Assembly (NCBI RefSeq): GCF_003569045.1 | Contig: NZ_BFCB01000003.1 | Location: 868,001 to 932,000, forward strand | DNA: 64,000 nt | Origin: Aggregatilinea lenta | GTDB taxonomy: Bacteria; Chloroflexota; Anaerolineae; Aggregatilineales; Aggregatilineaceae | Direction: 5' to 3' | In this document: positions 9,250 to 64,000 of the stretch, piece after piece | Layout: each line of letters starts with the position of its first letter | Numbering within the stretch: the first letter of the stretch is position 1 | Position numbers and translations under genes: made by a program | The notes under the pieces: generated by a model | What the model was told of the DNA's origin: nothing | Database searches by the model: none | Seen by the model: the letters and a program-made list of their open reading frames with translations, nothing else

Positions 9250-10095
9250 TTACTGGACCGAGTGCCGCCGGAACAGCCACGCCGTGATCGGAACAGAGAC
9301 GACGATGATCGCGATCGACCAGACCACCGACAGCCATGCGGAATCGCCGAGCGGCGTGCCGACCAGCCACGCCCGGATCGCGTTGATCGTATGGGTCAGA
9401 GGTTGGTTTTCGGCAAATGTTCGGATAAGTTTCGGCATCGTCTCCGTCGGCACGAACGCGCTGGACACAAACGTCAGCGGGAAGATCAGCATGAAGCCCA
9501 CCCACTGCGCGGCCTCCAGGCTCTTGACCAGAAGCCCCAGAATGGCCGACAGCCACGAGATCGCCAGCGTGAACAACAACGACAGCCCGATCACGAGCAG
9601 CCATTCCGTCAGGCTTGCACTAGGGCGGAACCCCACCGCGAACCCGGCCAGGATGATGATGATGCCCGAAATGACGTTGCGCACCAGATCGGCGGCGATG
9701 TGCCCGACAACCAGGGCAATGCTGGACATGGGCAACGACCGGAAGCGGTCCACCACGCCTTCCTTCATGTCCACCGCGAGGTTGATCGTCGTGTAGTTGG
9801 CTCCGAAAGCCAACGTCTGGATCAGGATACCGGCGAACAGATAATTCGCATAGCTCACCTCGCCCGTGTCAATCGCGCCGCCGAGCACATAGCGGTTCAG
9901 CAGCATGAACATGATCGGGAACAGAATCAGCGACAGCACCTGATCGAGGCTGCGGACGATGTGCATCGTGCTGCGCTTCGTCATAATCCATGAATCGGAG
10001 ATCAGCCAGAAGACCGACGAGCGGCACTCAGCCAGCGGCGGCGACAGGAATGCATTGTCAGCCACGCGTGGCGACGGGAGCGTAGTCTCAGCCAT
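9250..10095 (-). CDS. ABC-2 type exporter permease, DrrB-like
   Basis: 281 aa membrane protein with six predicted helices and the ABC-2 permease pattern (MTKRSTMHIVRSLDQVLSLI at the cytoplasmic start, then VLGGAIDTGEVSYANYLFAG). DrrB-like permeases pair with DrrA-like ATPases to export drugs, lipids or peptides. The start at 10095 (MAETTLPSP) was preferred over one 45 bp further upstream because GGAGAGA precedes it. It then overlaps the ATPase gene end by 8 bp, a typical coupled arrangement. The gene lies downstream of the RiPP precursor in the same orientation, so the cargo could be the modified peptide; this is inference. Confidence 0.82.
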   Translation of the reverse strand: MAETTLPSPRVADNAFLSPPLAECRSSVFWLISDSWIMTKRSTMHIVRSLDQVLSLILFPIMFMLLNRYVLGGAIDTGEVSYANYLFAGILIQTLAFGANYTTINLAVDMKEGVVDRFRSLPMSSIALVVGHIAADLVRNVISGIIIILAGFAVGFRPSASLTEWLLVIGLSLLFTLAISWLSAILGLLVKSLEAAQWVGFMLIFPLTFVSSAFVPTETMPKLIRTFAENQPLTHTINAIRAWLVGTPLGDSAWLSVVWSIAIIVVSVPITAWLFRRHSVQ

Positions 10096-11083
10096 GAATG
10101 CTCTCTCCATCGTTGTGTACGCCATCTTTAGACATACCATTGTCGGTCAGGAACATGAATACGTCGTCGAGCGTTGGGCGGCGCATCGACACGCTTTCGA
10201 CTTCGATCTGCGCGTCTTCCAGGCGCTGCAAAATCTGCTTGAGCGTGGTCGCGCCGTTGGTGGCCGCGATGGTCAGGATGCGCTGGTCCGCGACGGCCTG
10301 AAGCTGCTCGCCGTCCACAGCCTGCTGCGCCAGCGCAAAGTTGCTGTTGGGTGAAATGGTGAGATCAACGTGATCGGACCCAACGCGCGACTTAAGGGTG
10401 TTCGCATCGCCTTCCGCGATCACCCGCCCCTCGTCGATGACCACGATCCAGTCCGCGAGGTAATCGGCTTCGTCCATGTACTGTGTCGTCAGCAGAATGG
10501 TCGCGCCGCTGTTGGCCAGATTTTTGATCGCGGCCCACATGTTCAGGCGGCTTCGCGGGTCCAGGCCCGTCGTCGGCTCGTCCAGAAAGATCACCGGAGG
10601 CGCGGCGATGAGGCTCATCGCCAGGTCGAGGCGGCGCTTCATACCGCCGGAATAGGTCTTCACCGGGCGGCGGGCCGCATCGACCAGATCGAACTGTACC
10701 AGCAGCTCCTGCGTGCGGCGCTTGGTATCGGCCTGGCTCAGGCGGTACAGACGGCCCAGCATTTGCAGATTCTCTTCGCCGGTCAGGTAGATGTCCACCG
10801 CGGCGAACTGCCCCGTCAGGCCGATGCTGCTGCGGACTTCGCAGGCCTGCTTCACGACGTCGTAGCCGTTGACATAGACCTGTCCATCATCAGGCGGCAG
10901 CAGCGTGCTGAGGATGCGAATCGTAGTGGTTTTGCCCGCGCCGTTGGGACCGAGCAGCGCAAGGATCGAGCCGCGCCGGACCCTGAAGTCAATGCCGTGC
11001 AGCACCTTGAGATCCTTGAACGACTTCTGGAGATTTTGCACTACAATGGCATTGGCGGCGGTGTGAGTCGGTGTTGATTCCAT
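10088..11083 (-). CDS. ABC exporter ATPase, DrrA-like
   Basis: 331 aa. Walker A is GPNGAGKTTT, the signature is TYSGGMKRRLDLAMSL, Walker B is VIFLDEPTTGLDP and the switch His is replaced by Gln in LLTTQYMDEAD, as is common in DrrA-type exporter ATPases. The C-terminal extension (about residues 230-331) contains the DrrA-type region ending in RRPTLDDVFMFLT. Start ATG at 11083 with CGGAGG upstream. It overlaps the permease by 8 bp. It lies 170 bp after the terminator of the precursor gene, and has its own promoter-like region. Confidence 0.88.
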   Translation of the reverse strand: MESTPTHTAANAIVVQNLQKSFKDLKVLHGIDFRVRRGSILALLGPNGAGKTTTIRILSTLLPPDDGQVYVNGYDVVKQACEVRSSIGLTGQFAAVDIYLTGEENLQMLGRLYRLSQADTKRRTQELLVQFDLVDAARRPVKTYSGGMKRRLDLAMSLIAAPPVIFLDEPTTGLDPRSRLNMWAAIKNLANSGATILLTTQYMDEADYLADWIVVIDEGRVIAEGDANTLKSRVGSDHVDLTISPNSNFALAQQAVDGEQLQAVADQRILTIAATNGATTLKQILQRLEDAQIEVESVSMRRPTLDDVFMFLTDNGMSKDGVHNDGESIHG

Positions 11084-11220: not shown

Positions 11221-11255
11221 GAAAAAAACTGCGCCCCGGACCATCCGGAGCGCAG
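11221..11255 (-). terminator. Rho-independent terminator of the RiPP precursor gene
   Basis: Read on the minus strand, CTGCGC (11250-11255) pairs with GCGCAG (11229-11234), and an inner CCGGA/TCCGG stem (11236-11240 with 11244-11248) continues it. Seven T residues (complement of 11222-11228) follow. It lies 35 bp after the precursor stop and should make a short monocistronic precursor transcript, leaving the exporter genes to their own promoter or to read-through. Confidence 0.85.
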
Positions 11256-11289
11256 CTGATGACTGTACGACGTGCGCTGCACGCGCGGG

Positions 11290-11622
11290 TTACTTCGTGT
11301 CGGGGGTGTCCGTCGTGTCGTCACTTTCCGCGTCGTCGTCATCCTGCACGAAGAACGCGTCGGACTTGGTGGCAGCGGTGGCATCATCATCGTCCTGGAC
11401 GAAAAAGGCATCTTTTTTGGCCGGTTCTTCAGCCGATTCGGGTAAAACGAGATGGACGGTTGTCGGTGTTTGCTCGTGTACAATATACTGGACGCCTTCG
11501 GGCAGCTTGGTGCCGGTGAAGGACTCAATCGCCCCGCGCGGATCGCTGAGCAGCAACTGCTTGAATTCCGGATCCTCGTGGGCTTTCTTGACGATGCTGG
11601 ACCATTTGATACCGTTTGCCAT
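11290..11622 (-). CDS. RiPP precursor with nitrile-hydratase-type leader peptide (NHLP) and duplicated acidic core motif
   Basis: 110 aa. Residues 1-62 match the NHLP (proteusin-type) leader: WSSIVKKAHEDPEFKQLLLS, then DPRGAIESFTG, LPEGVQYIVHEQTP and VHLVLPE. NHLP leaders guide RiPP enzymes to a C-terminal core. Here the usual C-terminal end of the leader, with a Gly-Gly cleavage site, is absent. The remainder is very acidic and carries DAFFVQDDDDA twice (residues 71-81 and 88-98, period 17 residues), then DDTTDTPDTK. The two copies are identical in protein, but 9 of 11 codons differ at the third base. AAGGAG lies just upstream of the ATG. A terminator follows. The divergent neighbour is a radical SAM RiPP maturase, which supports the call. 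The product and the modified residues are unknown. Confidence 0.85.
   Translation of the reverse strand: MANGIKWSSIVKKAHEDPEFKQLLLSDPRGAIESFTGTKLPEGVQYIVHEQTPTTVHLVLPESAEEPAKKDAFFVQDDDDATAATKSDAFFVQDDDDAESDDTTDTPDTK
11329..11412 (-). repeat. Two coding repeats of the precursor core motif
   Basis: Copy 1 is 11380-11412 and copy 2 is 11329-11361; each is 33 bp and encodes DAFFVQDDDDA. Only the fourth (TTC) and sixth (CAG) codons are the same; every other codon differs solely at its third base. The repeat is therefore old and held constant at protein level. Confidence 0.9.
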
Positions 11623-11661
11623 CGTGACTCCTTTTGCCAGGTAGAACCAGACCTCACCTTA

Positions 11662-11692: not shown

Positions 11693-11827
11693 CTTAGAGC
11701 GTGTCTGCAAAGGGGCTTTTGGTATGATCCTTATCCCTCAAGACCCGGAGCGTCAACAGAGTGGCTCCCCTTCTCCCTCGGGGGAGAAGGGGCCGGGGGT
11801 TGAGGGTTTGCGGACACACTCTTAGAG
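11693..11827. mobile_element. MITE-like element of about 135 bp with terminal inverted repeats
   Basis: The left end CTTAGAGCGTGTCTGCAAA (11693-11711) and the complement of the right end (11807-11825, CTAAGAGTGTGTCCGCAAA) match at 16 of 19 positions. Between them is a GC-rich hairpin (CCCCTTCTCCCTC against GGGGGAGAAGGGG) and GGCCGGGGGTTGAGGG. There is no transposase. A similar CTCCCTT...GGGGAAGGGCCGGGG segment occurs at about 18775-18825. It sits in the gap between the precursor and the divergent radical SAM gene. Confidence 0.65.
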
Positions 11828-11894: not shown

Positions 11895-14015
11895 ATGACG
11901 ATCTCTGCGACGACCTCCGGCCCGCACGGCAGCGCGCCCGTACTGCTGGTCTCGATGCCCTTCGGCCCCATCTCCCAGCCGTCGATCGGCCTGACGCTGC
12001 TCAAAGGCGTGCTGCACGAACACGGCATCTCCTCGTCGATCCTGTATGCCACGCTGCTGTTCGCAGAGATGATCGGCGGCAGCGTCTATAACCAGATCTC
12101 CAGCGGCAACCCCTACGTCGATCTGGCGGGCGAGTGGGTGTTTGCAAACGCGCTGTTCGACGGCCAGAACGCGCTGCACAGCCGCTTCGTGGATGACGTG
12201 CTGCGCCGCCAGTCGCCGCTCAACAACCGCCGGGAGCACGTGCCCGAAGCCTACATCGAGCGGCTGCTGTCTGCCGTCCCGCACGTAGACGCCTTTCTCG
12301 ACCGCGCCGTCGAGGCGGTGCTGGCCCGCCAGCCGCAGATCGTCGGCATCACCAGCACCTTCCAGCAGCACGTTGCGTCGTTGTGCCTCGCCGGGCGGCT
12401 CAAGGCGGCCAGGTCCGACCTGTTCATCGTCATGGGCGGCGGCAACTGCGAAAGCACGATGGGTGCTGAGACGGTGCGGCAATTCGGCGCGGTGGACGCC
12501 GTCGTGTCCGGCGAGGGGGAGCGCGTCTTCCCCGACCTCGTGCGGCGCGTGCTGGACGGCCAGCCGGTTGACGACCTGCAAGGCGTGCTGACGCGCCGCA
12601 ACGTCGAGCGCCTCGCCGCCGGGCCGCTCAACGCGCCTCCGGTGATCGACATGGAGACACTGCCGCTGCTCGACTACGACGACTTCTTCGAACAGCTCGA
12701 CGGCAGCGCTGTGCCGCGCCCGCCGAACACGCGCGTGCTGTTCGAAACGTCGCGGGGCTGCTGGTGGGGTGAGCGTAGCCACTGCACGTTTTGCGGCCTG
12801 AACGGCGAGACGATGGCCTATCGCAGCAAGCCCGCTGACCGTGCGATCCGCGAGCTGGCGGGGCTGGCGACGCGCTATCCCGATCTGCCGGTGTGGGTGG
12901 TCGATAACATCCTCGACATGCACTACTTCGACGACTTCATCCCGATGCTGGGCGAGCTTGGGCTGGATCTGGAGCTGTTCTACGAGGTCAAGGCGAACCT
13001 GCGTAAGTCGCAGCTCGTGCAGCTGCGTGAGGCGGGTATTCTGCACTTGCAGCCGGGCGTGGAGAGCTTGAGCGACCCCGTACTCAAGCTGATGAAAAAG
13101 GGCGTGAGCTGGCTGCAAAACGTGCAACTGCTGAAGTGGGGCGAGGAACTGGGCATCAACGTCTACTGGAATATTCTGTGGGGCTTCCCCGGCGAGGATC
13201 CCGCCGACTACGAGCAGATGCACAGGCTGTTCCCGCTGCTGCACCACCTGAACCCGCCGGTCAGTCTGGCGCAGATCCGTCTGGACCGCTTCAGCCCGCA
13301 CTTCAACCACGCCGACGCGGAGGGCTTCGCCAATGTGCGCCCGGCGCTGCCCTACGACTACATCTACGCGCTCGACGCGGATGCCCGCGCCAATCTGGCC
13401 TACCACTTCTTTTACGACTACCGCGACCCGCGCGACCTCAACGGCTACACGCAGCCGCTGTTCCGCGAAGCGAAGGCGTGGCGGCGCGAGCACGACCGCA
13501 GCGCCCTGATGCTGGTCGATCTACAGTCGCACCTGCTGATCTGGGATCTGCGCGCGGTGGCCGCGCAGCCGCTGACCGTGCTGGCAGGCTGGCAGCGCGC
13601 GCTGTACCTGTACTGCGACGAGGTGCGCAGCGGTCGGGCGCTGGCGGCCTTCGCGGAGGCGGAAGGGGTCGATCCTGCCGTGATACAGGACTGCCTGGAG
13701 GCGTGGGCGGCCAGCAGGCTGGTCGTGCGGGGCGGGAACAGCTGCCTTAGCCTGGGCGTGCCGCTGGGCGGCTACGCCCCCGCGCTGGAGGTGATGCTGC
13801 GGCTTAAGGAGGCGGCGAGCGGCGCGGGGATTGCGCTGGATCACGACACGCGCCTGGACTGTCCGGTTCTGGACACGCGTTTCTTTGGCGTCGATGCGAG
13901 TGGGCATCCATTCGTGTATTTTAGCGCATTATGCGCTCTAATTAACCTGTCGATCAACCAGGAATTGACGCGCGCCAGCGGTCAGACTGTGGCGGGCATC
14001 ACGCTCGATATTTGA
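11895..14015 (+). CDS. RiPP maturation B12-binding radical SAM enzyme (putative peptide C-methyltransferase)
   Basis: 706 aa. Residues about 15-235 form a B12-binding-type domain (MPFGPISQPSIGLTLLKGVL at its start, FIVMGGGNCES later). The radical SAM core starts near residue 283, with the unusual cluster motif C289-x7-C297-x2-C300 in SRGCWWGERSHCTFCGLNGE. That spacing and the surrounding GCWWG and CTFCGLN residues are the hallmark of the RiPP maturation radical SAM protein 1 family, whose genes occur beside NHLP or Nif11 leader precursors and which are annotated as C-methyltransferases. The C-terminal 200 residues are family-specific. AGGAGAGG precedes the ATG. It is divergent from the precursor at 11622, its likely substrate. 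The reaction on this peptide is inferred. Confidence 0.85.
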   Translation: MTISATTSGPHGSAPVLLVSMPFGPISQPSIGLTLLKGVLHEHGISSSILYATLLFAEMIGGSVYNQISSGNPYVDLAGEWVFANALFDGQNALHSRFVDDVLRRQSPLNNRREHVPEAYIERLLSAVPHVDAFLDRAVEAVLARQPQIVGITSTFQQHVASLCLAGRLKAARSDLFIVMGGGNCESTMGAETVRQFGAVDAVVSGEGERVFPDLVRRVLDGQPVDDLQGVLTRRNVERLAAGPLNAPPVIDMETLPLLDYDDFFEQLDGSAVPRPPNTRVLFETSRGCWWGERSHCTFCGLNGETMAYRSKPADRAIRELAGLATRYPDLPVWVVDNILDMHYFDDFIPMLGELGLDLELFYEVKANLRKSQLVQLREAGILHLQPGVESLSDPVLKLMKKGVSWLQNVQLLKWGEELGINVYWNILWGFPGEDPADYEQMHRLFPLLHHLNPPVSLAQIRLDRFSPHFNHADAEGFANVRPALPYDYIYALDADARANLAYHFFYDYRDPRDLNGYTQPLFREAKAWRREHDRSALMLVDLQSHLLIWDLRAVAAQPLTVLAGWQRALYLYCDEVRSGRALAAFAEAEGVDPAVIQDCLEAWAASRLVVRGGNSCLSLGVPLGGYAPALEVMLRLKEAASGAGIALDHDTRLDCPVLDTRFFGVDASGHPFVYFSALCALINLSINQELTRASGQTVAGITLDI

Positions 14016-14135: not shown

Positions 14136-17100
14136 ATGACACATCGACAACGGCTCTTTGCCAACCGTTACCGGTTAGTCGAAGAGCTGGGACATGGGGG
14201 GATGGGCATCGTCTACCGGACGCAGGATCACCTGACCGGGGACGAAGTCGCTCTCAAACAGGTATTGGCCTCGATCACCTCGACGTCGCTGACGCCCTAC
14301 AGCGCCGAGCAAGACAAGAATATTGCGCTGGCCCGCGAGTTTCAAACGCTGGCGACACTGCACCATCCCCGCATCATCACGGTTTTGGACTACGGCTTTC
14401 ATAAGGAAACGGACAAGCCGACGCTTCCGTACTTCACGATGGTGCTGCTGCGGGACGCCAAAGATATTTTATCGTACGGCAAGACGATCGAGGCCAAAGA
14501 GAAGCTGCACCTCGTGCTGCAGGTGCTGCAAGCCCTGGACTACCTGCACCGGCGCGGCACCATTCACCACGACCTCAAACCGGCCAACATCCTCGTCTCG
14601 AACGGCATGGTCAAGCTGCTCGACTTCGGGCTGGCGGCCAAGCACGGGCAGATCACCGGCATCACCGGGACGATCCCCTACGTCGCGCCCGAACTATTCA
14701 CGCAGAGCGCCCTTGCCAACGAAACGACCGACCTGTACGCCCTGGGCGTCATCGCGTACGAGATGCTGAGCGGTCATCACCCCTTCAGCACCGAGCACCA
14801 GTACAAGCTGATTCAGGACATCCTGACGCGCCTGCCGGATATGTCGCCCATCAACGCCATCCGGCTGGGCGAGACTCCGCTGGAGGAACCGGCGCCCGAC
14901 GACGAAGACGACTTCGTGCGGCCCTCCACGCTGCCGACCAGTCCGTTGGCGAGGGTGATCTACAAGCTGCTGTCCAAAAAGGCGGAGGATCGCTACCAGA
15001 GCGCGGCCAGCGTGATCCAGGATCTCGTCGTGCTGCTCGACGATCCGATCGTCCTGGAGACGCCGGAGATCCGCGAGAGCTACCTGCAGGCGGCGACATA
15101 CGTGGGCCGCACGGCGGAAATCGCGCTGCTGGACGAGGCTGTGAGCCAGGTGCTCGACGGGCAGGGCAGCAGTTGGCTGATCGGGGGCGAGAGCGGGGTG
15201 GGCAAGTCGCGCCTGATCGACAAGGCGCGTATCCAGGCGATGGTGCAGGGCGTGCTGGTCCTGGTCGGGCAGGGCGTGGAGCAGGGCGGGCTGCCCTATC
15301 ACCTCTGGCGCGACATCATGCGCCGCCTGTGCCTGACGGTCGATCTTTCCGATCTCGAGGCGGGCGTGTTGGCCGCGCTGGTGCCGGACATTGAAGTTTT
15401 GCTGGGGCGTACGGTGCCGCCGCCGCCCGCGCTGTCCAGCGAGGATGCGCGCGATCGCTTGATCACGATTATCGTGGACGTGATCAAGCGCTACCCGGAG
15501 CCGATCCTGCTTATTCTGGAAGACCTCCAGTGGGCGTCGGAGAGCCTGGAAGTGCTGCGTTGGGTCAACGCGGCCACCGACAGCACGGCGCTGCTGATCA
15601 TCGCGTCGTTCCGCGACGACGAACAGCCCGATCTGCCGCTGAAGCTGCCGGAAATGCGCTACCTTAAGCTGGACCGGCTGAATAAGCAGGAAATCGCCGA
15701 GCTGAGCGAAGCCATGTTGGGCCAGATGGGACGCCGGTCGGGCCTCGTCGAGCTGCTGCATGCCGAAACCGAGGGCAACGTCTTCTTCCTGGTGGAAACG
15801 GTCCGCGCGTTGGCGGAGCAAGCCGGGGATCTGTCCAAGATCAGCACGCTGGAGCTGCCCTCGCAGATCGTCGCGCACGGCATCCAGGGTATTGTCGAGC
15901 GCCGCCTGCGCGGGGTGAACGAGCCTGACCGGCAGGTGCTGCATGTCGCCTCGGTGATGGGGCGGCAGTTGGAGCTGGCGCTGCTGGCCTATATCGTCAG
16001 CCACAATGACGAGTACACGCAGAAGGACCTCGAACAGTGGCTGAGCGTGTGCTCGAACACGGCGATCATCGAGATCAGCGACGGCAAATGGCGCTTCACG
16101 CACGACAAGATCCGGCAGGAGATCCTGAACCAGATCCCCGACGCCGATCGCGTTCAGTTCCACCGGCAGGCCGCCGAAGCTATCGAGGCGCTCTACGTCG
16201 ACCGGGCCGTGTATGCCTCGACGCTGGTGCATCACTGGCGCATCGCGCAGAATCCCTACAAAGAGGCCGAGTCGGCCAGCCTCGCGGGCCATCATGCCGT
16301 CGAGCTGGGATCGTACGTGGAAGCGTTCGACATGCTCAAGCATGCGATCGCCCTGTACGACCGCCTGAACCTGGACGAGCCATCACGTTACCTGGACGAC
16401 CAGTTCGAGCTGGCGCGGTGCTGCATGAACCAGGGATGGTTTGACGACGCGCTCCGGGTGAGCGATATCGCGCTGCGGCTGGCGCGTGAGCAGGGCAACG
16501 AGAAGCGTGTGATCGACGTTTTCACGTTGCTCGGCTCGGTGGCGCTGCGTCAGGGGCAGATCGACGTGGCGAACCAGCAGTTGATCGAGGCGCTGGCGTT
16601 GGCGCGCAGGCTGGGCGACACCGCCGTCGTCAGCGACACCCTGATCTGGCTCGGCGCGCTGTCGGTGATAGGCCACGAGCACCAGCAGGCGAACACCTAC
16701 CTGCGAGAAGCGCTTCAGCTCGCCCGGCAGGACATCCAGAATCCGTTGATTCTGGCGCGGGCGCTGAACGCCCAGGGCGAAAATCTGCGCCACTCGCGGC
16801 GGTTCAAAGAGGCCGCGCCCTACTACGAGGAAGCGTTGCAACTGTACAAGCAGACGGGTCACCGCTACGCGACGACCGCCGTGCCCTTGAACCTGGGGCA
16901 CGCCGCCTTTGCGATGGACGACCTGGATCTCGCGGAACAGTATTACCTGGGCGTGCTCGAAGCGACGCTGCGGATCAAGTACACGATGATGCTGTTGGAA
17001 GCGCTCGCGGGACTGGCCGGCATCTGGGCGCGGCGGGGAGCGCCCGAACGGGCGGCGTCACTGCTCGGCGTTGTGCTGCGGCATCCGTCGGTGTCTGCCG

Positions 17101-17261
17101 AGACGAAGGTGTTGTTCGCGCAGCCTATTGCGGAGGAAGTCACGCGCGCGATTGGCCAACCGGCCTACGAGAAAGCCTACCGTCATCTGGCGGTGGACCA
17201 CGTAGAGGCGATCGTGTCGGATATTCTGGCCGAGCAGCGGTCGAAATCGGGCCAGGACTAG
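14136..17261 (+). CDS. Ser/Thr protein kinase fused to an AAA/STAND ATPase and TPR repeats
   Basis: 1041 aa signalling protein. The kinase domain (about 10-300) has the glycine loop GHGGMGIVY, catalytic Lys41 in VALKQV, the catalytic loop HHDLKPAN with Asp146 (HHD rather than HRD, so a non-RD kinase), DFG at 163-165 and VAPE. From about residue 325 there is a PknB-associated AAA_16-type ATPase with Walker A GGESGVGKSR and Walker B ILLILEDLQWAS. The C-terminal third is helical with TPR-like repeats, for example in AREQGNEKRVIDVFTLLGSV. Such proteins sense ligands or partners through the TPR array and control kinase output. The gene starts 120 bp after the radical SAM gene. No link to the RiPP is shown. 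Confidence 0.85.
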   Translation: MTHRQRLFANRYRLVEELGHGGMGIVYRTQDHLTGDEVALKQVLASITSTSLTPYSAEQDKNIALAREFQTLATLHHPRIITVLDYGFHKETDKPTLPYFTMVLLRDAKDILSYGKTIEAKEKLHLVLQVLQALDYLHRRGTIHHDLKPANILVSNGMVKLLDFGLAAKHGQITGITGTIPYVAPELFTQSALANETTDLYALGVIAYEMLSGHHPFSTEHQYKLIQDILTRLPDMSPINAIRLGETPLEEPAPDDEDDFVRPSTLPTSPLARVIYKLLSKKAEDRYQSAASVIQDLVVLLDDPIVLETPEIRESYLQAATYVGRTAEIALLDEAVSQVLDGQGSSWLIGGESGVGKSRLIDKARIQAMVQGVLVLVGQGVEQGGLPYHLWRDIMRRLCLTVDLSDLEAGVLAALVPDIEVLLGRTVPPPPALSSEDARDRLITIIVDVIKRYPEPILLILEDLQWASESLEVLRWVNAATDSTALLIIASFRDDEQPDLPLKLPEMRYLKLDRLNKQEIAELSEAMLGQMGRRSGLVELLHAETEGNVFFLVETVRALAEQAGDLSKISTLELPSQIVAHGIQGIVERRLRGVNEPDRQVLHVASVMGRQLELALLAYIVSHNDEYTQKDLEQWLSVCSNTAIIEISDGKWRFTHDKIRQEILNQIPDADRVQFHRQAAEAIEALYVDRAVYASTLVHHWRIAQNPYKEAESASLAGHHAVELGSYVEAFDMLKHAIALYDRLNLDEPSRYLDDQFELARCCMNQGWFDDALRVSDIALRLAREQGNEKRVIDVFTLLGSVALRQGQIDVANQQLIEALALARRLGDTAVVSDTLIWLGALSVIGHEHQQANTYLREALQLARQDIQNPLILARALNAQGENLRHSRRFKEAAPYYEEALQLYKQTGHRYATTAVPLNLGHAAFAMDDLDLAEQYYLGVLEATLRIKYTMMLLEALAGLAGIWARRGAPERAASLLGVVLRHPSVSAETKVLFAQPIAEEVTRAIGQPAYEKAYRHLAVDHVEAIVSDILAEQRSKSGQD

Positions 17262-56026: not shown

Positions 56027-59000
56027 TTACTTCGCGGCGTACACGTCGATCGAGTCGAGCGCAACCGCGTGCCCCTCTGAGGAGGCGTTGGCCTTGCCGG
56101 TTGCTTCGATCTTCAGCGTATGCTCACCCGGCTCGACGAAGAAGATATCGCTTTGCTCGATGCGGCTGACGCTGCTGTAGCTGTCGATGGTGGCGACCCG
56201 TTCACCGTCGATGGTGACGGTGAACGTGCCGAAGTTCCAGTAGTCGAGGTAGTGCAGGCGCACCTTTTCGCCGTTGAACTTCAGCGTGACGGACGCGTCC
56301 CTGTCGGTGCTGAAATAGTAGTCGCCGCTGGACGTATACTCGGACAGACTGCGCTCCCAGTCGCCGCTCAGCTTCGTGCCGCTGTCGCCGACTTCGGTGC
56401 GCGTCCAGCTTCCGGTGGGCGGCGCGGTGAGCTGTTCCTCGCCGGTCTTGCGCCAGCTCTGGAACGTGGCGCGCACCACGAGGCGCTGGCCGTAGGTCCA
56501 CTCGTCGCTGTCCCAGTCCGCGCAGGTCAGCAGCGTGATCATCGGTTGGTTGCTCGGATAGGTGACGTTCACCTCGTCCGGGGCCACTTCGCGGACCGAC
56601 GACACGGCGTAGGTGTATTCCACGCCCTCGCCGCGCGCGACGATCAGATCACCGACCTCAAGCTGGTTCAGGTTGCGGAACGGCCCCGGTCCGGTTTTGT
56701 GATAGATGTGCCCCGCGAACACGGCGTTGCCGACCGTGCCCGCGTAGGCTGTGCCGTCGAGATGCGCGATCTCACTCGTGAAGGTCGAAACGTCCCAGGT
56801 CGTGCCGACCACCGGCGCGTCGACCAGCGTTGTGTCGATGCCGATGCGCGGGATGATCAGGCGCTCGGCGGGGATGTCGGGCGCGGCGAAGTGCCGCGCC
56901 GCGTCCGCACCGGACGCGCCCTGATCGGCTTCCCAGGCGACGGGCAGATCGGCCCACGTGCCTTCCGGTGCGCTGTAGTCGGGCGCGGTCGGTTGTGCGG
57001 CCTGCTCTTGTGCCGCCGGATCCTCGGCGGGCGCGTTCGAGTCGCCGCCGCTGAGCAGCACGCCCACGATGACCAGCGCGATCGTTCCGACGAGCGCGAC
57101 GGCGCCCACGGCGATGCGTCCTGGCCGGGGCAGGATCGCCGCGAGGCGGTCGCTGCGGTATTCGGCCAGCAGTTGAAGCAGCCCCCACATGAGGCAGGCC
57201 GCCAGGACGACCAGGGCCAGCGCCAGCGCGACGGTGTGCGTGCTGCTGCTGTCCGCGTCGGATTGCTGCACCGGCAGCGCCAGATCGAAGTGCGGCTGGT
57301 CGCCGGTGCTGGGGAGTAAGCTCGGCCCGCTGCCACTGCTTCCGCTGCCGTAGGAACTGCTGCCGCCGCTGGTGGTCAGCGTGCTGGCGGTCGGCGTGCT
57401 GGTGGGGATGACGGTCGGCGTCGCGGTTAGCGTGGTCACGCGGGCGATGATGGCGACCGGCGCGGCTGCCGAGGTCTGGACGGAGCCGCCCGTGTAGGTC
57501 ATCTGCGCCACGTTGTTGATCGTGCTGCCGGGCGCTGCCGTGCCCGCGATGGTGACCGTGATACTCATCGAGACGGAGCTGCCGGGGGCAATGGACCCTA
57601 GGCTGAAGATCACCGCGTTGGTGGTCGCGTCGTAGGCCGACGACCCCTGCGACTGCGTGGACGAGGCGTAGACGAACATACTGTTCAGCGGGTCGGCGAT
57701 GACCACGTTGTCCAGGGTGGCGGCGTATGGGTTGCTGGCTGTGATGTAGAACACGACCTGCTCGCCGGGGGCCGCCTGGTTGACCGACGCGGATTTGAGG
57801 ATGGCCGGGTCTTCGATGACCAGCCCCATCGTGCCGTTGGCGCAGCCGCCGCTGATGTTGACGGTCACCGTCTTGATCAGCGTGCCGGGGTCGAAGATGA
57901 TCGCGCCGCCGAGCGAGATCTGGCTGACCTGGATGGTGTAGTTGCCTGCGGGCAGGCTGGCGACGTTGTAGAAGCCCTGCGCGTCGGTGGTGGCGGTGGT
58001 GACCAGCGTGCCGCCGTTGTAGATGTAGATCAGCGTGTTACTGAAAACCGTCTCGCCTGTGTCGAGCACGCCGTTTCCGTTTTCGTCCGAGAAAACCTGG
58101 CCCTGGACGCAGCCGCCTGCGCTGGGCACGGCGGTCGTCGTGTCGGTCACGGACGCGGACAGGTTCGAGGCGGTCAGGCTGGTCGCCACGATGGACGTGC
58201 TGTCCACCGCGCTGCCGGACGAGGCCGGAACGGTGACCGTGTAGGCGATGCTCAGCGTGCCGCCTGCGGGCACACTCGGCGTGGTGTAGGGCACGCTGCC
58301 CGACGTGAGCGTGGTTAGCGGCGTGCTGCCGCTGCTGATCTGGACGTTTTGTGTCCAGCCCGCCGTGCTGCCGACCACGTCGATGATGTACTGGTCGGGG
58401 TCGGTGCCGGTGTTGGTCAGCGTGTGCAGGTAGGTGTACGAGGCCCCGGCGTTGACCGGCATCGCCTGGCTGACCGGCGTGAAGGTGAACGATGTGGCCG
58501 AGTTGAGGGCCATATTGAACGTGGCGCAGCCCTGGTCCACGCCGCCGAGGCTGGCACAGGCCGTGTTGCTGACGGTTTCGACCGCAGCGGCGGCCAGCAG
58601 GTCGCTGTCGACCGCGATGTGGTTGTTGACGATGGCGTCGTCGCCCGCTTCGATCAGGAAGCGCATGTAGAAGTCGTGCGGCGCGGCGGCGCTGGTCGGC
58701 GGCGTGGTTGACGTCGAGATCTGGCCGCTGTCCACGATCGGGCTGGCGTCGAAGGCTTCCGTGTGGGGCGGATAAGTGGCCGACGGGAAGGTGTACCCGG
58801 CGGGCAGCGGCTCGACCAACTCCAGCACGAATTCCCGCGTGCCACTTGCGGGTACACCGTTGGTCGTGCCGCTGGTGATGTCGAAGCGGTAGCTGCCGTC
58901 TGCGCCCGTCAATTGCGGGTTGGCCTGGATCGTGTCGGCCAGGATCGCGGTGCTGTCCTCGTAGTAGACCAGCCGGATCGAGACGTTCGGAGCCGGGTCG

Positions 59001-62000
59001 CCCGTTGCGCTCACGTAGACGGTGCCGCTGGGGTCGAACGGGTCCAGGTAGTTGGGCGTGCCGTTGTCGTTCCGGTCGCCGATGCCTTCCACGCCGTCCG
59101 GGGACGTGTCGTGGTCGGTATCCACCGCGTAGGCGAAGCTCGGTCCTTCGAGCACCTGCGGCTCGACGGGCGCGCCGCCGTCCTCCGGCTCTGCCGTGGC
59201 GATACGGAGCACGGTCGGCTCGGCCTCTTCGGTCGCCGCCAGAGCGGGAACCGGGGTCGCCGTATCTGGCGCGGCAGGTGCGGCCTCGATCACAAGCGGC
59301 GAGGGATTCTGGATGCCGTGATTACCCGTGGACACCGTGTCCATATAGTTGGCAGGCAGGGTGCTCTCGTCCAGCCAGACCCAATACGCGCCCGGCTCCA
59401 TGCCGGGGAAGGCGTACTGGCCGTCCGGGCCGACCTGCGTGTGCGCGACTTCGGTGTCGCTCGTGCGGTCGAAGACGCCATCGCCGTCGTCCGCGTAGAG
59501 GTAGACCTCCACGTTGCGGATGCCGGACTCGATGTCGCCATCCCGCTGGCGGTTGCCGTCGTTGTCGTTGAAGACCAACCCGACGAGGTCGCCCGGCGCG
59601 GCTTCCGGTCCTGCTGCCGCCGCGACCGGCTCCAGGATGTTCTCGCCGCCGGGCGCGAAGACCAGCAGCGGCTCCCAGGCCGGATTGGCCGAGTCGGGCA
59701 GGTCGATCCAGTAGATGCCTGCCGTCACGTCGAACAGGTACTGTCCGTCGTCGCCCGTGACGAGGCTGTCGGCGGCGGCGTCCAGCGCCGGATCGAAGGC
59801 CACGTCGCCATCATCCGCGTACAGATCGACCGTGGTTCCGGCGGCGGGCGTGTCGCCCTTGCTGATCCGGCTGTCCTCATCTGTGTCGAGCCAGATCGTG
59901 CCGCCGATTTGCAGCAGATCGAGCGCTTCGGTTGCGTCCGGCGTGACCTCTGCCGTGACTTCGGCGGTCGCCTCAAGCGTCAGGTCGGCGGTTGCTTCGG
60001 CGGTGACGTCCGCCGTAGCCTCGATCGCCGCTTCTTCCGTGGCCTCAGCCGTCGCGTCGACCGCCGGTGCTTCCGTGGAGGTCACGTCGTCGCCGGACGT
60101 GCGGATCTCGATGAAGTCCAGCGCCAGGACCGTGCCCGCGCTGGCGGCGTTGGCCTGCCCGGTGTTTTGGATGCGCAGCGTATGCGGCCCGGCGGGCACG
60201 TCGAAGGTGTCGCTCAGCCCGTCGGTGGCCTCGGTGTTGTAGCCGTCGAGGGTGGCGACCGGTACGCCGTCCAGGGTGATTTCGAAGATGCCGAAGTTCC
60301 AGTAGCGCAGGTAGCTCACCCGCACGCCGTCGCCGTCAAAGTTCAGCGTCGCGCTGGCCCCGGTCCCTTCAGCGTAGAAGTAGCTCCCGCCGGAGACAGT
60401 CGGAGAGTCGATCGCGGCCCAGATGCCGTCAAGCTGCACGGCCTCGCCGCCGACTTCGTACCGCGTCCAGCCGCTTTCCGCCGGACCGGCGCCTTCCGTC
60501 TGCTCGTAGCTGCCGAACGGTGTGCTGGTCGGGGTTGGGCCGGACGGCTCGGTGGTTGCTTCAGTCGCTTCGGCGGTGGCGGGTTCTGTGGCCGGATCAG
60601 TCGCGGGCGCGGTGGCCTGCGGCCACTCGTCGAACGTCGGGGTCGGCGTGGGCACGATGGACGACGGCGGGACCAGCGTGCCGCGCACGTCGATCGCGTC
60701 CAGGGCGATGATGTGCCCCTGCGAGAGCGCGTTGGCGTCGCCCGTGTTCTGGATGCGGATCGTGTGCTGGCCGGGGGCCAGACTGTATTCGGCGCTGGTC
60801 AGCAGCTCGCTCTGCGCGCTGTAGCCATCCACCGTGGCGATGAGCTGCTCGTCGGCGTAGATCTGGAAGAAGCCGAAGTTCCAGAACAGCAGGTAGTGCA
60901 GGCGGAACATGTCGCCTTCAAAGGCGAGCGTGATGCCCGCGTCGTCCTGCTGCGAGTAGACGTAGTTGCCTTCCGAGACGAAGGACGACTGGATCTCCTC
61001 CCACGCGCCGTCCGCCAGGGCGGTGCTCGACGTGATCTGGTAACGCGACCAGCCTTCGGCCAGCGGCGGCAGCAGGGTCGGGGAAGGGACGATTGTTGGC
61101 GTTTCGGTCGGCGTGATGGTGGCCGTCGCCGTGGGGATCGGCGTGAAAGTCGCCAGCCCCAGCGGCGTGCCCGGCGCAGCCGTGTCGATTGGCGCGGCGG
61201 TTTCGCCGGGGGCCAACGTTTCTTCGACGGTCGGCAGCGTGCCGGTTGGTGACGGCGTCGCGGTCGGGGTGGGCGTGCCGGGCAGCACTTGCAGCACGGC
61301 CAGCGCGTCGAGCGCAATCATCGTGCCCTGTGCGGCCTCGTTGGCCTGCCCCGTGTTCTGGATGCGCAGCGTGTGTGCGCCCAGCGCCAGCGGATAGTCC
61401 GGGCTGGACTTGAGCACCATCTCGGCGTCGTACGCGTCGATGGTATCGACCAACTGCTCGTCGATGTAGAGGTCGAAGATGCCCAGGTTCGGCGCGCCCA
61501 GGTAGGCCAGGCGCAGCCCCTTGCCGGTGAAGGTGTAGGTCAGCGAAGCATCGGGTTCGACCGAGTACAGGTACGTGCCCTGCGACGCCTGCGGCCAGTC
61601 GTAAGCGGCCCAGAAGCCAGCCCAGGTGCCGGTCTGCTCGGTCAGCTCGAAGCCAACCCACGTTTCGATCTCGGTTGGCTGTCCGCTGACCGGGGTAACG
61701 GTCGGTGGCACCACGACGGTCGCCGTGGCGGCGGGCAGCGGTGTTTCGGTTGGCAGATCAGGCGCTTCGGTGGGCGCGTCCGTCGCGTCGGCGACCGGCG
61801 GCTCCTCAGCGGGCGCGTCGCTGGTCGGCGGCACATCCGTCGGCGCGTCCTCCACCGGCTCAACGGTCGGCGGCACAGCGGTCGGCTCTGCCGGGACCGC
61901 CGTCGGATCGGTGAAGGGCAGCTCTGGGGCGGGGGTGGACGGGTCGCCTTCCTCGCCGCCTTGCGCGAACAGCCTGCCGTCCGGGGCCAGGAGCAGCCCG

Positions 62001-64000
62001 CCGAACAGCGCCAGCACGATCAGCAGACTCAGCCACCGGAACGCGCGGCGACGGTTGATCCCGCCCAGGCCCAGCAGCGGCAGGAACAGCCCGAAGCCGA
62101 GGCCCGTGTAGTCCGTGGGCGGGATGCCGGTGACGCCCGATGACGCCACCGTCGTCTCGAAGGTGACGACGCCGACCTGCCCGCCGGGGATCGACGGCAG
62201 CGGAATGCTGAGGGCCGCCCCTTGCGTGTTGCTCTGCGGCGTCAGCCCGGCGACAGGAGCCGTCGAGGGACATGCCGCCAGCACGCCGGTCGAGAAGGTC
62301 GTGGGGGCGTCGAGCGCCGCCGTGTCGATGGTGTCGGTGACGACCACCCCGCCCACAGCGGACGCGGACGGGTTCGTGACACAGATGATCCAGGCGATGG
62401 TGTCGCCTTCTTCCAGCGCGCCGCCGTTCATGTCAATGCCCTGCTTGGTGATGGTCAGCGCCGCGCCGCCGCTTCCGGCGGTGAAGGCTGCCGTATCAAC
62501 GTTGTTGTTGGCGTTCGAGTCGGTCTGGTCCTGCGTAACCGTCGCCGTGTTGGTGACCGTGCCCGATGCGCTGGCGGCGACGGTTGTCTGGATGGTGAGC
62601 GTCGCGCTGCTGCCGGACGTCAGACTGCCGATCTGCCACAGCCCGGTCCCCGGTGTGTACGTGCCGGTGGACGGGGTGTTGCTGACGTGCGTCACGCCTG
62701 CGGGCAGCATGTCGGTCACGCTGACGTTGGTCGCGTCGGCGGGGCCGTTATTGGTCACGACGAGCGTGTACGTCACGGTGTCGCCCGCGTCGGCGGCGGC
62801 GGTGCTGGCCGTCTTGTCGATCTGGACGTCCGTGCCGCCTGCCACTTCGTTATCGGTGATCGTCACGGTGACGTTGGCCGGGTCGACCCCGCTGTACGTG
62901 CCGTCGGTGCTGGTAGCGGCCCCGGTGACGACCGTGCAGGTGCGCCCGCCGGGGTTCGAGATGAAGTCGTCCGCCACCTGGATCGTCACCTGCTGGCTGG
63001 CTGGGCCAGTCGGCGTGAACTGCACCGACGTGACGCTGCCCAGCGAGCAGGCCGTATCGCCGGTGAGGCCCAGCGAGACCGTGACGTTGGCGGTCGGCGC
63101 GCTGCCGATCACCAGATTGAAGCTGGCGCTGCCGCCTTCCGCGATCGTCAGGCTGGTCGGCGCGGGGCTGATGGTGCCCGGCGTGCCGGTGGTGTCGGTG
63201 TCGTGCACGGTGACCACGACGTCGGCAGGATTGCCGCTGAAGTTTGTGTCGCCGCTGGTCACCGCGCCGGTCTGGACGGTACAGGTCTGGTCGCCGTCCA
63301 CCACGTCGTCGTCGACGCCGTTGACGTTGACGAAGACGCCGGTCTGCCAGTTGGAACTGGTCAGCGTAACGGGCGATGCGCCAGAGTCCAGCGCGCATTC
63401 GCTGTTGGACGTGCTCAGGGCGATGGTTACGGGCTGGGTCGGCTGGGCGGTCAGGCGCACGTTGAACGATTGCACACCGCCCTCGTCGACGGCCAGCGCG
63501 GTCGGATCGACCACGACGCCCGCCGTGTCGTTGTCGGTGACGCTCAGCGTCACATTGTCCACGGTCATGCCGTTGTAGGTCGTGTCGGTGCTGGCCGCGT
63601 CGCCGGTCGTGATCGTACAGGTCTGCGTGCCGTCCACCTCGGTATCATTGGCCCCGCGCACCGTGACGGTGACGCCGGTCTGCCAGTTGGTCGCGTCGAG
63701 GTGGGCCGGGCTGGTGCTGACGACTGTGCATTCGTCCGGCGTGGCCGAGGTCACGGCGATGTTGACGAACGCGGTCGGCTGGCTGGTCAGGGCCAGGGTG
63801 AAGGTCGCCTGCGTGCCCGATTCGCTGATGGTCGCTGGCGTGGGCGCGCCGACCGTAATGCCTGCTGCATCGTTGTCCGCGACGGTCGCGCTCACCTGGG
63901 GCGGATTGTCGCCGTTGAAGTTCGGGTCGGCGCTGATCGCGCTTTGGAGCTGGACGGTGCAGGTCTGCGTGCCGTCCACGATGTCGTCATCGACGGCGGT
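56027..64000 (-). CDS. Giant multidomain surface protein with LPSTG sorting motif and fused sortase (5' end beyond window)
   Basis: 2,657 residues are visible; the frame stays open to the window edge, so the N-terminus is missing. Order from the edge: Calx-beta-like repeats with Cys pairs (about 64000-62850; VDGTQTCTV units), DUF11 domains (62830-62150), a hydrophobic pair with internal signal-like segment (62110-61970), a Pro/Thr/Ala linker, three copies of a 125-residue module (61660-60090), SdrD-B-like domains (59900-59330), further DUF11/SdrD-B units (58960-57450), LPSTG (57302-57316), two membrane helices, then a sortase domain with His at 56708-56710, Cys at 56522-56524 in LLTCADWD and Arg near 56471-56473, and finally a fourth module copy. 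Sortases join LPxTG proteins to surface polymers; here both halves share one chain. Ser/Thr/Asp-rich throughout. Confidence 0.85.
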   Translation of the reverse strand, partial: TAVDDDIVDGTQTCTVQLQSAISADPNFNGDNPPQVSATVADNDAAGITVGAPTPATISESGTQATFTLALTSQPTAFVNIAVTSATPDECTVVSTSPAHLDATNWQTGVTVTVRGANDTEVDGTQTCTITTGDAASTDTTYNGMTVDNVTLSVTDNDTAGVVVDPTALAVDEGGVQSFNVRLTAQPTQPVTIALSTSNSECALDSGASPVTLTSSNWQTGVFVNVNGVDDDVVDGDQTCTVQTGAVTSGDTNFSGNPADVVVTVHDTDTTGTPGTISPAPTSLTIAEGGSASFNLVIGSAPTANVTVSLGLTGDTACSLGSVTSVQFTPTGPASQQVTIQVADDFISNPGGRTCTVVTGAATSTDGTYSGVDPANVTVTITDNEVAGGTDVQIDKTASTAAADAGDTVTYTLVVTNNGPADATNVSVTDMLPAGVTHVSNTPSTGTYTPGTGLWQIGSLTSGSSATLTIQTTVAASASGTVTNTATVTQDQTDSNANNNVDTAAFTAGSGGAALTITKQGIDMNGGALEEGDTIAWIICVTNPSASAVGGVVVTDTIDTAALDAPTTFSTGVLAACPSTAPVAGLTPQSNTQGAALSIPLPSIPGGQVGVVTFETTVASSGVTGIPPTDYTGLGFGLFLPLLGLGGINRRRAFRWLSLLIVLALFGGLLLAPDGRLFAQGGEEGDPSTPAPELPFTDPTAVPAEPTAVPPTVEPVEDAPTDVPPTSDAPAEEPPVADATDAPTEAPDLPTETPLPAATATVVVPPTVTPVSGQPTEIETWVGFELTEQTGTWAGFWAAYDWPQASQGTYLYSVEPDASLTYTFTGKGLRLAYLGAPNLGIFDLYIDEQLVDTIDAYDAEMVLKSSPDYPLALGAHTLRIQNTGQANEAAQGTMIALDALAVLQVLPGTPTPTATPSPTGTLPTVEETLAPGETAAPIDTAAPGTPLGLATFTPIPTATATITPTETPTIVPSPTLLPPLAEGWSRYQITSSTALADGAWEEIQSSFVSEGNYVYSQQDDAGITLAFEGDMFRLHYLLFWNFGFFQIYADEQLIATVDGYSAQSELLTSAEYSLAPGQHTIRIQNTGDANALSQGHIIALDAIDVRGTLVPPSSIVPTPTPTFDEWPQATAPATDPATEPATAEATEATTEPSGPTPTSTPFGSYEQTEGAGPAESGWTRYEVGGEAVQLDGIWAAIDSPTVSGGSYFYAEGTGASATLNFDGDGVRVSYLRYWNFGIFEITLDGVPVATLDGYNTEATDGLSDTFDVPAGPHTLRIQNTGQANAASAGTVLALDFIEIRTSGDDVTSTEAPAVDATAEATEEAAIEATADVTAEATADLTLEATAEVTAEVTPDATEALDLLQIGGTIWLDTDEDSRISKGDTPAAGTTVDLYADDGDVAFDPALDAAADSLVTGDDGQYLFDVTAGIYWIDLPDSANPAWEPLLVFAPGGENILEPVAAAAGPEAAPGDLVGLVFNDNDGNRQRDGDIESGIRNVEVYLYADDGDGVFDRTSDTEVAHTQVGPDGQYAFPGMEPGAYWVWLDESTLPANYMDTVSTGNHGIQNPSPLVIEAAPAAPDTATPVPALAATEEAEPTVLRIATAEPEDGGAPVEPQVLEGPSFAYAVDTDHDTSPDGVEGIGDRNDNGTPNYLDPFDPSGTVYVSATGDPAPNVSIRLVYYEDSTAILADTIQANPQLTGADGSYRFDITSGTTNGVPASGTREFVLELVEPLPAGYTFPSATYPPHTEAFDASPIVDSGQISTSTTPPTSAAAPHDFYMRFLIEAGDDAIVNNHIAVDSDLLAAAAVETVSNTACASLGGVDQGCATFNMALNSATSFTFTPVSQAMPVNAGASYTYLHTLTNTGTDPDQYIIDVVGSTAGWTQNVQISSGSTPLTTLTSGSVPYTTPSVPAGGTLSIAYTVTVPASSGSAVDSTSIVATSLTASNLSASVTDTTTAVPSAGGCVQGQVFSDENGNGVLDTGETVFSNTLIYIYNGGTLVTTATTDAQGFYNVASLPAGNYTIQVSQISLGGAIIFDPGTLIKTVTVNISGGCANGTMGLVIEDPAILKSASVNQAAPGEQVVFYITASNPYAATLDNVVIADPLNSMFVYASSTQSQGSSAYDATTNAVIFSLGSIAPGSSVSMSITVTIAGTAAPGSTINNVAQMTYTGGSVQTSAAAPVAIIARVTTLTATPTVIPTSTPTASTLTTSGGSSSYGSGSSGSGPSLLPSTGDQPHFDLALPVQQSDADSSSTHTVALALALVVLAACLMWGLLQLLAEYRSDRLAAILPRPGRIAVGAVALVGTIALVIVGVLLSGGDSNAPAEDPAAQEQAAQPTAPDYSAPEGTWADLPVAWEADQGASGADAARHFAAPDIPAERLIIPRIGIDTTLVDAPVVGTTWDVSTFTSEIAHLDGTAYAGTVGNAVFAGHIYHKTGPGPFRNLNQLEVGDLIVARGEGVEYTYAVSSVREVAPDEVNVTYPSNQPMITLLTCADWDSDEWTYGQRLVVRATFQSWRKTGEEQLTAPPTGSWTRTEVGDSGTKLSGDWERSLSEYTSSGDYYFSTDRDASVTLKFNGEKVRLHYLDYWNFGTFTVTIDGERVATIDSYSSVSRIEQSDIFFVEPGEHTLKIEATGKANASSEGHAVALDSIDVYAAK
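60090..61660 (-). repeat. Three tandem copies of a 125-residue surface module (fourth copy at 56027-56410)
   Basis: Copies at about 61660-61285, 61065-60690, 60480-60095 and, after the sortase, 56410-56030. Shared pattern: YxYS or YYFS, then DASxTLxFxG, VRLxYLxYWNFGxF, DxYxV/AT, then HTLRIQNTGxAN and xxALDxIxV. Fold is unknown to me; the pattern looks like a beta-sandwich or jelly-roll. Copies are separated by P/T/A-rich linkers. Confidence 0.85.

What the first reader, a model, noticed from the sequence alone, without database searches (positions are those of the whole stretch)
11290..11622. RiPP precursor whose core is an 11-residue acidic motif in two copies kept identical while codons drifted
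Seen directly: residues 1-62 match the NHLP leader, and DAFFVQDDDDA occurs at residues 71-81 and 88-98. Of 11 codon pairs, 9 differ, all at the third position, and no amino acid differs. This means strong selection on the peptide. Established: NHLP leaders precede RiPP cores. Inference: each copy may become one product, or a repeat of metal- or cation-binding character (4 Asp in a row plus Phe-Phe-Val-Gln). I do not know a described RiPP with this core.
Basis: partly seen in the sequence, partly recalled or inferred. Interest (0 to 1): 0.88.

Follow-up and report, generated by a model that had tools for sequence, protein, structure and literature searches.

The report
Two-copy acidic peptide precursor with methylase
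A bacterium carries a small gene that looks like the raw material for a modified peptide: a standard recognition domain followed by the same unusual acidic eleven-residue stretch twice, next to an enzyme of a family known to add methyl groups to such peptides; such a pair was seen in no other genome searched, so it is probably a new product of a known production scheme.

Summary
The 110-aa gene has an NHLP leader over the cut-off. DAFFVQDDDDA occurs twice; 9 of 11 codons differ, all at the third base, with no amino-acid change, which 0 of 400,000 neutral simulations matched at each of four transition biases. It is the genome's only NHLP match, 272 bp from the only TIGR03975 match, a B12 radical-SAM enzyme with the Cx7Cx2C motif described for PoyB and PoyC. 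Best reading: a proteusin-like RiPP precursor with two equal cores, C-methylated at F, V or Q. The modification is inferred. Unlike canonical proteusins it lacks LXXXXL and GG. The predicted homologues were not found: no second genome showed two nearby copies among 400 phylum genomes (FFVQDDD), 154 order genomes and 297 of another phylum (FFVQDD), nor did 80 related enzyme loci. The adjoining exporter pair is shared by relatives without the cluster. A Ser/Thr kinase beside the enzyme recurs in related loci, 8 of 19 against 0 of 61, a grouping chosen after the pattern was noticed. New variant of a known kind.

The parts
11290..11622 (-). RiPP precursor gene, 110 aa
   Evidence: TIGR03793 53.9 bits over cut-off 50.9; only NHLP match in the genome
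11437..11622 (-). NHLP leader, residues 1-62 (model: three helices, two strands)
   Evidence: match over residues 9-65; structure model pLDDT 77-88 over residues 11-50; best fold matches 9cjx and 8tb1, proteusin precursors
11380..11412 (-). core copy 1, DAFFVQDDDDA, residues 71-81
11329..11361 (-). core copy 2, DAFFVQDDDDA, residues 88-98
   Evidence: 9 synonymous codon differences, 0 amino-acid differences
11623..11635 (-). ribosome-binding-site-like stretch AAAAGGAGTCACG before the ATG
   Evidence: sequence
11227..11257 (-). terminator-like hairpin with T tail just after the precursor gene
   Evidence: 14 pairs (4 such sites in the region against 3.4 expected, so no excess in number); -25.7 kcal/mol, z -4.36, 1 of 200 shuffles folds as well
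11895..14015 (+). B12-binding radical-SAM RiPP enzyme, TIGR03975, Cx7Cx2C at residues 289-300
   Evidence: 638 bits against cut-off 281.85; Pfam Radical_SAM and B12-binding over their cut-offs; cysteines invariant in three aligned sequences, window included
14136..17261 (+). Ser/Thr kinase - AAA - TPR protein, 120 bp after the enzyme gene; possibly part of the cluster
   Evidence: Pfam; kinase recurrence beside related enzymes
9250..11083 (-). DrrA/DrrB-like ABC exporter pair; neighbour, probably NOT part of the cluster
   Evidence: pair 77-83% identical in four same-family genomes without precursor or over-cut-off TIGR03975

Best explanation
The gene encodes a RiPP precursor. Its folded NHLP leader presents a flexible tail holding two equal 11-residue cores to the B12 radical-SAM enzyme encoded 272 bp away. 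The enzyme most likely C-methylates the Phe-Phe-Val-Gln part of each core (F, V and Q all have precedent among enzymes with this cysteine motif). A protease of the host then releases one product per copy; the shared Lys two residues before each core is a possible cut site. Shown: leader, two cores under selection, enzyme family, adjacency. Inferred: that the enzyme acts on this precursor (about 0.85), that the change is C-methylation (about 0.6), that both copies are cut out as products (about 0.5). The export route and the activity are unknown.
For: NHLP leader over cut-off, single in the genome, beside the genome's single TIGR03975 match: two singletons 272 bp apart in 6.2 Mb. [quoted passage not shown] PMC11285071 gives it for PoyC. 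Some related loci also pair a TIGR03975-type enzyme with NHLP precursors: L164/G740 (GG type) and L112 (no GG, two precursors ending LTQYNAAVGF and LTQYNAAVVF). Codon evidence that both copies are kept. Leader modelled like a proteusin leader, tail of low confidence.
Against: No other genome with paired copies was found and no such small ORF in 80 enzyme loci. The precursor is divergent from the enzyme gene, and has its own terminator-like hairpin. No GG or LXXXXL site; no protease among the neighbours scanned. In the DNA held, most of the 80 related enzymes have no NHLP-type ORF by my profile (hits in 8 of 80 loci, clear in 5). B12 radical-SAM RiPP enzymes can do other chemistry (PbsB cross-links). 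One survey dropped TIGR03975-rule clusters as likely false positives (PMC9426513 passage).
Confidence: 0.55

Rival explanations
1. The enzyme acts on the cores but does other chemistry, such as a carbon-carbon link involving the Phe pair; two rings per precursor.
For: The B12 radical-SAM enzyme PbsB cross-links two aromatic side chains (PMC12257519 passages); the core has an adjacent Phe-Phe; the enzyme also hits the ApyD model weakly (74.3 bits, cut-off 750).
Against: PbsB needs prior modification by other enzymes; none was identified among the five neighbouring proteins scanned. The Cx7Cx2C members named in the review passages are C-methylases.
Confidence: 0.15
2. The protein is not cut: it stays whole as a modified acidic, perhaps cation-binding or phosphorylated protein in a kinase-linked system, with two docking or binding repeats.
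For: No known cleavage boundary; a Ser/Thr kinase gene lies 120 bp after the enzyme gene, and kinases recur in related loci, 8 of 19 against 0 of 61; the tail after residue 64 has 17 acidic and 4 basic residues of 46; Ser/Thr residues follow each repeat.
Against: Eight kinase-linked loci (L054, L055, L057, L058, L060, L061, L062, L081) have candidate small ORFs quite unlike this one, so no shared substrate is seen. None of the kinase-linked loci matches the AAA-TPR part of the window's kinase. NHLP leaders are known from peptides that are cut.
Confidence: 0.2
3. Precursor and enzyme are neighbours by chance or remnants of a lost cluster, and the repeat is a low-complexity acidic tail.
For: None of the 17 other same-family genomes has a TIGR03975 match over the cut-off or paired motif copies; one of them, G009, has an NHLP-type gene, of GG type.
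Against: Synonymous-only divergence of the copies, intact frames, two singletons side by side.
Confidence: 0.1

Closest known systems
Proteusins such as polytheonamide (with PoyB/PoyC)
   Same: NHLP leader; B12 radical-SAM enzyme with Cx7Cx2C
   Different: Core is short, acidic and in two identical copies; the long hydrophobic core of polytheonamide is recalled. No GG boundary, no LXXXXL; no epimerase or lanthionine enzyme among the neighbours scanned
TvgA/TvgB (repeating TVGG motif, cyclopropylglycine; PMC9062424 passages)
   Same: Short motif repeated in one precursor beside a radical-SAM enzyme, thought by its authors to give several small products
   Different: Motif is TVGG; the word cobalamin does not occur in the paper's main text; leader type not looked up
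G740 locus L164, same class
   Same: TIGR03975-like enzyme (625 bits to the window's by phmmer) directly before an NHLP precursor
   Different: Precursor has GG and a Val/Ile/Thr-rich core; more genes that look biosynthetic; no kinase hit in the 12 kb printed
Locus L112, record titled Armatimonadetes
   Same: TIGR03975-like enzyme with NHLP precursors that lack GG and have short ends
   Different: Two precursors with one core each, not one precursor with two cores

Membership tests
NHLP leader family (TIGR03793) | score over curated cut-off | tested here: met
   53.9 against 50.9 bits, model positions 8-63 of 77
NHLP leader family (TIGR03793) | leader fold | tested here: met
   model with three helices and two strands from 11 sequences, mean pLDDT 67.7, pTM 0.41; best matches 9cjx and 8tb1, E 2.6e-3 and 7.0e-3, none at 0.001 or below; both also matched by sequence
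Canonical proteusin | LXXXXL motif and double-Gly leader/core boundary (PMC10858898 passages) | tested here: not met
   no Leu and no Gly after residue 61 in the translation
Canonical proteusin | matured, modified peptide | not testable with these tools
   needs mass spectrometry
RiPP maturation radical SAM C-methyltransferase (TIGR03975) | score over curated cut-off | tested here: met
   638 against 281.85 bits, positions 1-605 of 606
PoyB/PoyC-type C-methylase | Cx7Cx2C and cobalamin-binding domain | tested here: met
   C289, C297, C300 invariant in three aligned sequences, window included; B12-binding Pfam 32.9 against 32.1 bits; no direct comparison with PoyB or PoyC sequences
PoyB/PoyC-type C-methylase | methyl transfer to a carbon of the core | not testable with these tools
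   needs co-expression
Multi-core RiPP precursor | identical core repeats under selection | tested here: met
Multi-core RiPP precursor | relatives with other copy numbers | tested here: inconclusive
   none found in the parts searched; genome contigs and metagenomes were not scanned for the core

The most novel reading that the evidence does not exclude
The locus belongs to an undescribed kinase-linked group of B12 radical-SAM peptide systems that use very different leaders (NHLP here, Lys-rich mini-ORFs in loci titled Acidobacteria and Gemmatimonadaceae). Here the output is a pair of identical C-methylated acidic undecapeptides, made under control of, or as a ligand for, the neighbouring Ser/Thr kinase.
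Probability: 0.15. Interest if true: 0.75.

Novelty: new variant of a known kind. Interest (0 to 1): 0.5.

Why it matters
If right, it adds a short, strongly acidic, two-copy core to the NHLP/B12 radical-SAM scheme and gives a small test case (one precursor, one enzyme) for how NHLP leaders without LXXXXL and GG direct such enzymes. The two copies with different codons are a built-in control for site choice. The recurrence of Ser/Thr kinases beside this enzyme group, if it holds in a wider sample, would point to a signalling role.

Tried and rejected
Dedicated exporter: rejected. The DrrA/DrrB-like pair after the precursor is 77-83% identical in four same-family genomes (G001, G003, G012, G014) that have no precursor and no TIGR03975 match over cut-off. 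In the 80 enzyme loci the permease matched in 0 and the ATPase in 11. Against this: L084 (titled Chloroflexales) has what looks like an ABC pair just before its enzyme (by eye).

Homologous cores. FFVQDDD: 2 of 400 phylum genomes, the own one (two sites) and G419 (one site, in a 175-aa ORF unlike the precursor). FFVQDD: 9 of 154 order genomes, 11 places; only the own genome has two near each other. In the phylum of L054: 60 of 297 genomes, 82 sites by the table, against 4 for the reversed-pattern control; no two sites on one contig closer than about 8 kb. I opened 19 of these loci, all 9 foreign places and 10 of the 82: 15 had an ORF of 30 aa or more with the motif, one copy each; the 8 lie in ORFs of 824-1006 aa, 5 of them with FFVQDDW, which recalls an outer-membrane receptor barrel (recalled, not tested) and would explain the excess over the control. 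The other 72 sites were not opened, so single copies of the full core are not excluded there. Viral contigs: 0 pattern matches and 0 confirmed relatives of 12 stretches. Plasmids: 9 records, leader part only.

Kinase link, taken up and weakened. I noticed the kinases first and tested afterwards, so the p-values are post hoc. Two definitions were used. By ORF ends within 4 kb, 12 of 83 rows bear the label, window included, and it is clustered on the tree (6 changes, shuffled mean 11.4, 0 of 500 as low). By kinase-domain hits within 4 kb, 8 of 19 clade loci against 0 of 61 others (p 2.6e-6); among 21 loci that I listed by title as Acidobacteriota, 5 of 10 against 0 of 11 (p 0.012). L054 (4.6 kb) and L056 (short contig) counted as without; near-copies (L060/L062, L058/L081) counted apart. 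The clade has SH-aLRT 94; in a tree of 30 chosen rows it was not recovered as one group and the clustering was weaker (5 changes, mean 8.6; 5 of 500 as low for the kinase label, 1 of 500 for the other).

Literature: FFVQD-type strings, 0 papers; TIGR03975 terms, 2 papers. No title or abstract start in the 12 listed of 15 papers was about kinase-linked radical-SAM RiPPs. Eight papers were seen as passages; the rest as search listings.

Full report
What was checked. The ORF at 11290-11622 (-) encodes 110 aa. It has an ATG behind a ribosome-binding-site-like stretch and matches the NHLP leader model at 53.9 bits, cut-off 50.9. DAFFVQDDDDA stands at residues 71-81 and 88-98. Nine of 11 codons differ, all at third positions, with no amino-acid change. 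In simulations that put nine random changes on one copy, 0 of 400,000 kept the peptide at each of four transition biases. The match extends to a Lys two residues earlier and ends sharply: the four residues after the motif all differ between the copies. So both copies are kept by selection, and the unit is about 11 to 13 residues. Exact repeats of 7 to 10 residues occur in 4 other ORFs of 365 in the window; this one is the longest.

Setting. The genome (6,202,555 bases) has one NHLP match and one TIGR03975 match, both over their cut-offs. They lie 272 bp apart and diverge. By a rough count of my own, two single genes fall that close by chance about once in ten thousand. In the order, 3 of 154 genomes have TIGR03975 over the cut-off. 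The enzyme scores 638 bits, has B12-binding and radical-SAM domains and Cx7Cx2C. [quoted passage not shown] F, V and Q of FFVQ are all on these lists. A terminator-like hairpin follows the precursor gene.

Leader. A model from 11 sequences shows three helices and two strands, at pLDDT 77-88 for residues 11-50, and a low-confidence tail. The best PDB fold matches are the proteusin precursors 9cjx and 8tb1, E 2.6e-3 and 7.0e-3; both are also found by sequence, after several nitrile hydratases. The LXXXXL helix and GG boundary described for proteusins are missing: after residue 61 there is no Leu and no Gly.

Relatives. Some lie on short contigs, so neighbours may be cut off. No small ORF there has this core. 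My own NHLP profile hit ORFs in 8 of 80 loci: clearly in L072, L112, L115, L131, L132, more weakly in L071, L086, L124, which look like other leader types by eye. In the same class, 24 of 396 genomes have an NHLP match, 11 over the cut-off. One, G740, pairs an NHLP precursor of GG type with a relative of the enzyme. Another, G724, has a 68-aa NHLP leader, 46% identical to the window's over 57 residues, with no core. So leader and enzyme families occur together in several loci, while the core looks like this genome's own.

Neighbours. The exporter pair is shared by four same-family genomes that lack the precursor and the enzyme, so it is probably not part of the cluster. The kinase gene has no close relative in 17 same-family genomes (best 41%) and lies 120 bp after the enzyme gene. 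Kinases recur beside related enzymes: 8 of 19 in the window's clade, 0 of 61 outside. This was tested after being noticed; the branch support is moderate, and a smaller tree did not recover the clade. In five of these loci, titled Acidobacteria, Terriglobia or Gemmatimonadaceae, tiny Lys-rich ORFs follow the enzyme; whether they are precursors is open.

Verdict. A RiPP precursor with two equal acidic cores, most likely C-methylated by the neighbouring B12 enzyme. The scheme is known; the core, its duplication and the leader end are new as far as searched. The chemistry, the cutting and the role of the kinase are inferred. A survey that left out TIGR03975-rule clusters as likely false positives is a reminder that this family alone proves little.

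Noticed in passing
L054:10121-10171, L057:10068-10220, L060:10071-10184, L061:4912-5169, L062:10125-10223: Tiny Lys-rich ORFs with ribosome-binding-site-like stretches directly after the TIGR03975-like enzyme in kinase-linked loci; three carry a Cys-Ile-aromatic stretch (VGCIFPG, VGCIFEG, YCIYG). Possible unusual precursors.
   Followed up: partly
L089:9983-10222 and 10437-10682, L090:6043-6273, L069:10014-10205: Small ORFs after the enzyme with an acidic run then a Val-rich end (for example EDDDDNGHGVSVGVVVSF) in Ktedonobacter-type loci; a similar Val-rich end in a Mycobacterium.
   Followed up: no
L116:7255-7728, L094:7482-7886, L088:3351-3749: Small ORFs before the enzyme with a shared N-terminal part (MRVAELEDKL) and Cys-rich repeats such as QQCTIRACTVV.
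   Followed up: no
L050:6740-8219: Five NHLP-leader ORFs in a row without GG, ending in short variable tails (KYTWV, KFVWI, KYNWL, KYVWF, PFIWT), on a Paenibacillus cellulosilyticus plasmid.
   Followed up: no
L163:4150-4356: Core-less 68-aa NHLP leader, 46% identical to the window's over 57 residues, 60 bp before a 1102-aa ORF that looks like a lanthionine synthetase (by eye).
   Followed up: no
L145:976-1755: Long NHLP-like ORF with many tandem GDACAALGGCV-type repeats.
   Followed up: no
window 11760-11810: Inverted-repeat stretch (CCCTTCTCCCTCGGGGGAGAAGGGG) between precursor and enzyme genes; may be a dispersed element (by eye).
   Followed up: no
window 56027-64000 (-): Very long ORF running off the window, with a start that looks like Calx-beta repeats (by eye).
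   Followed up: no
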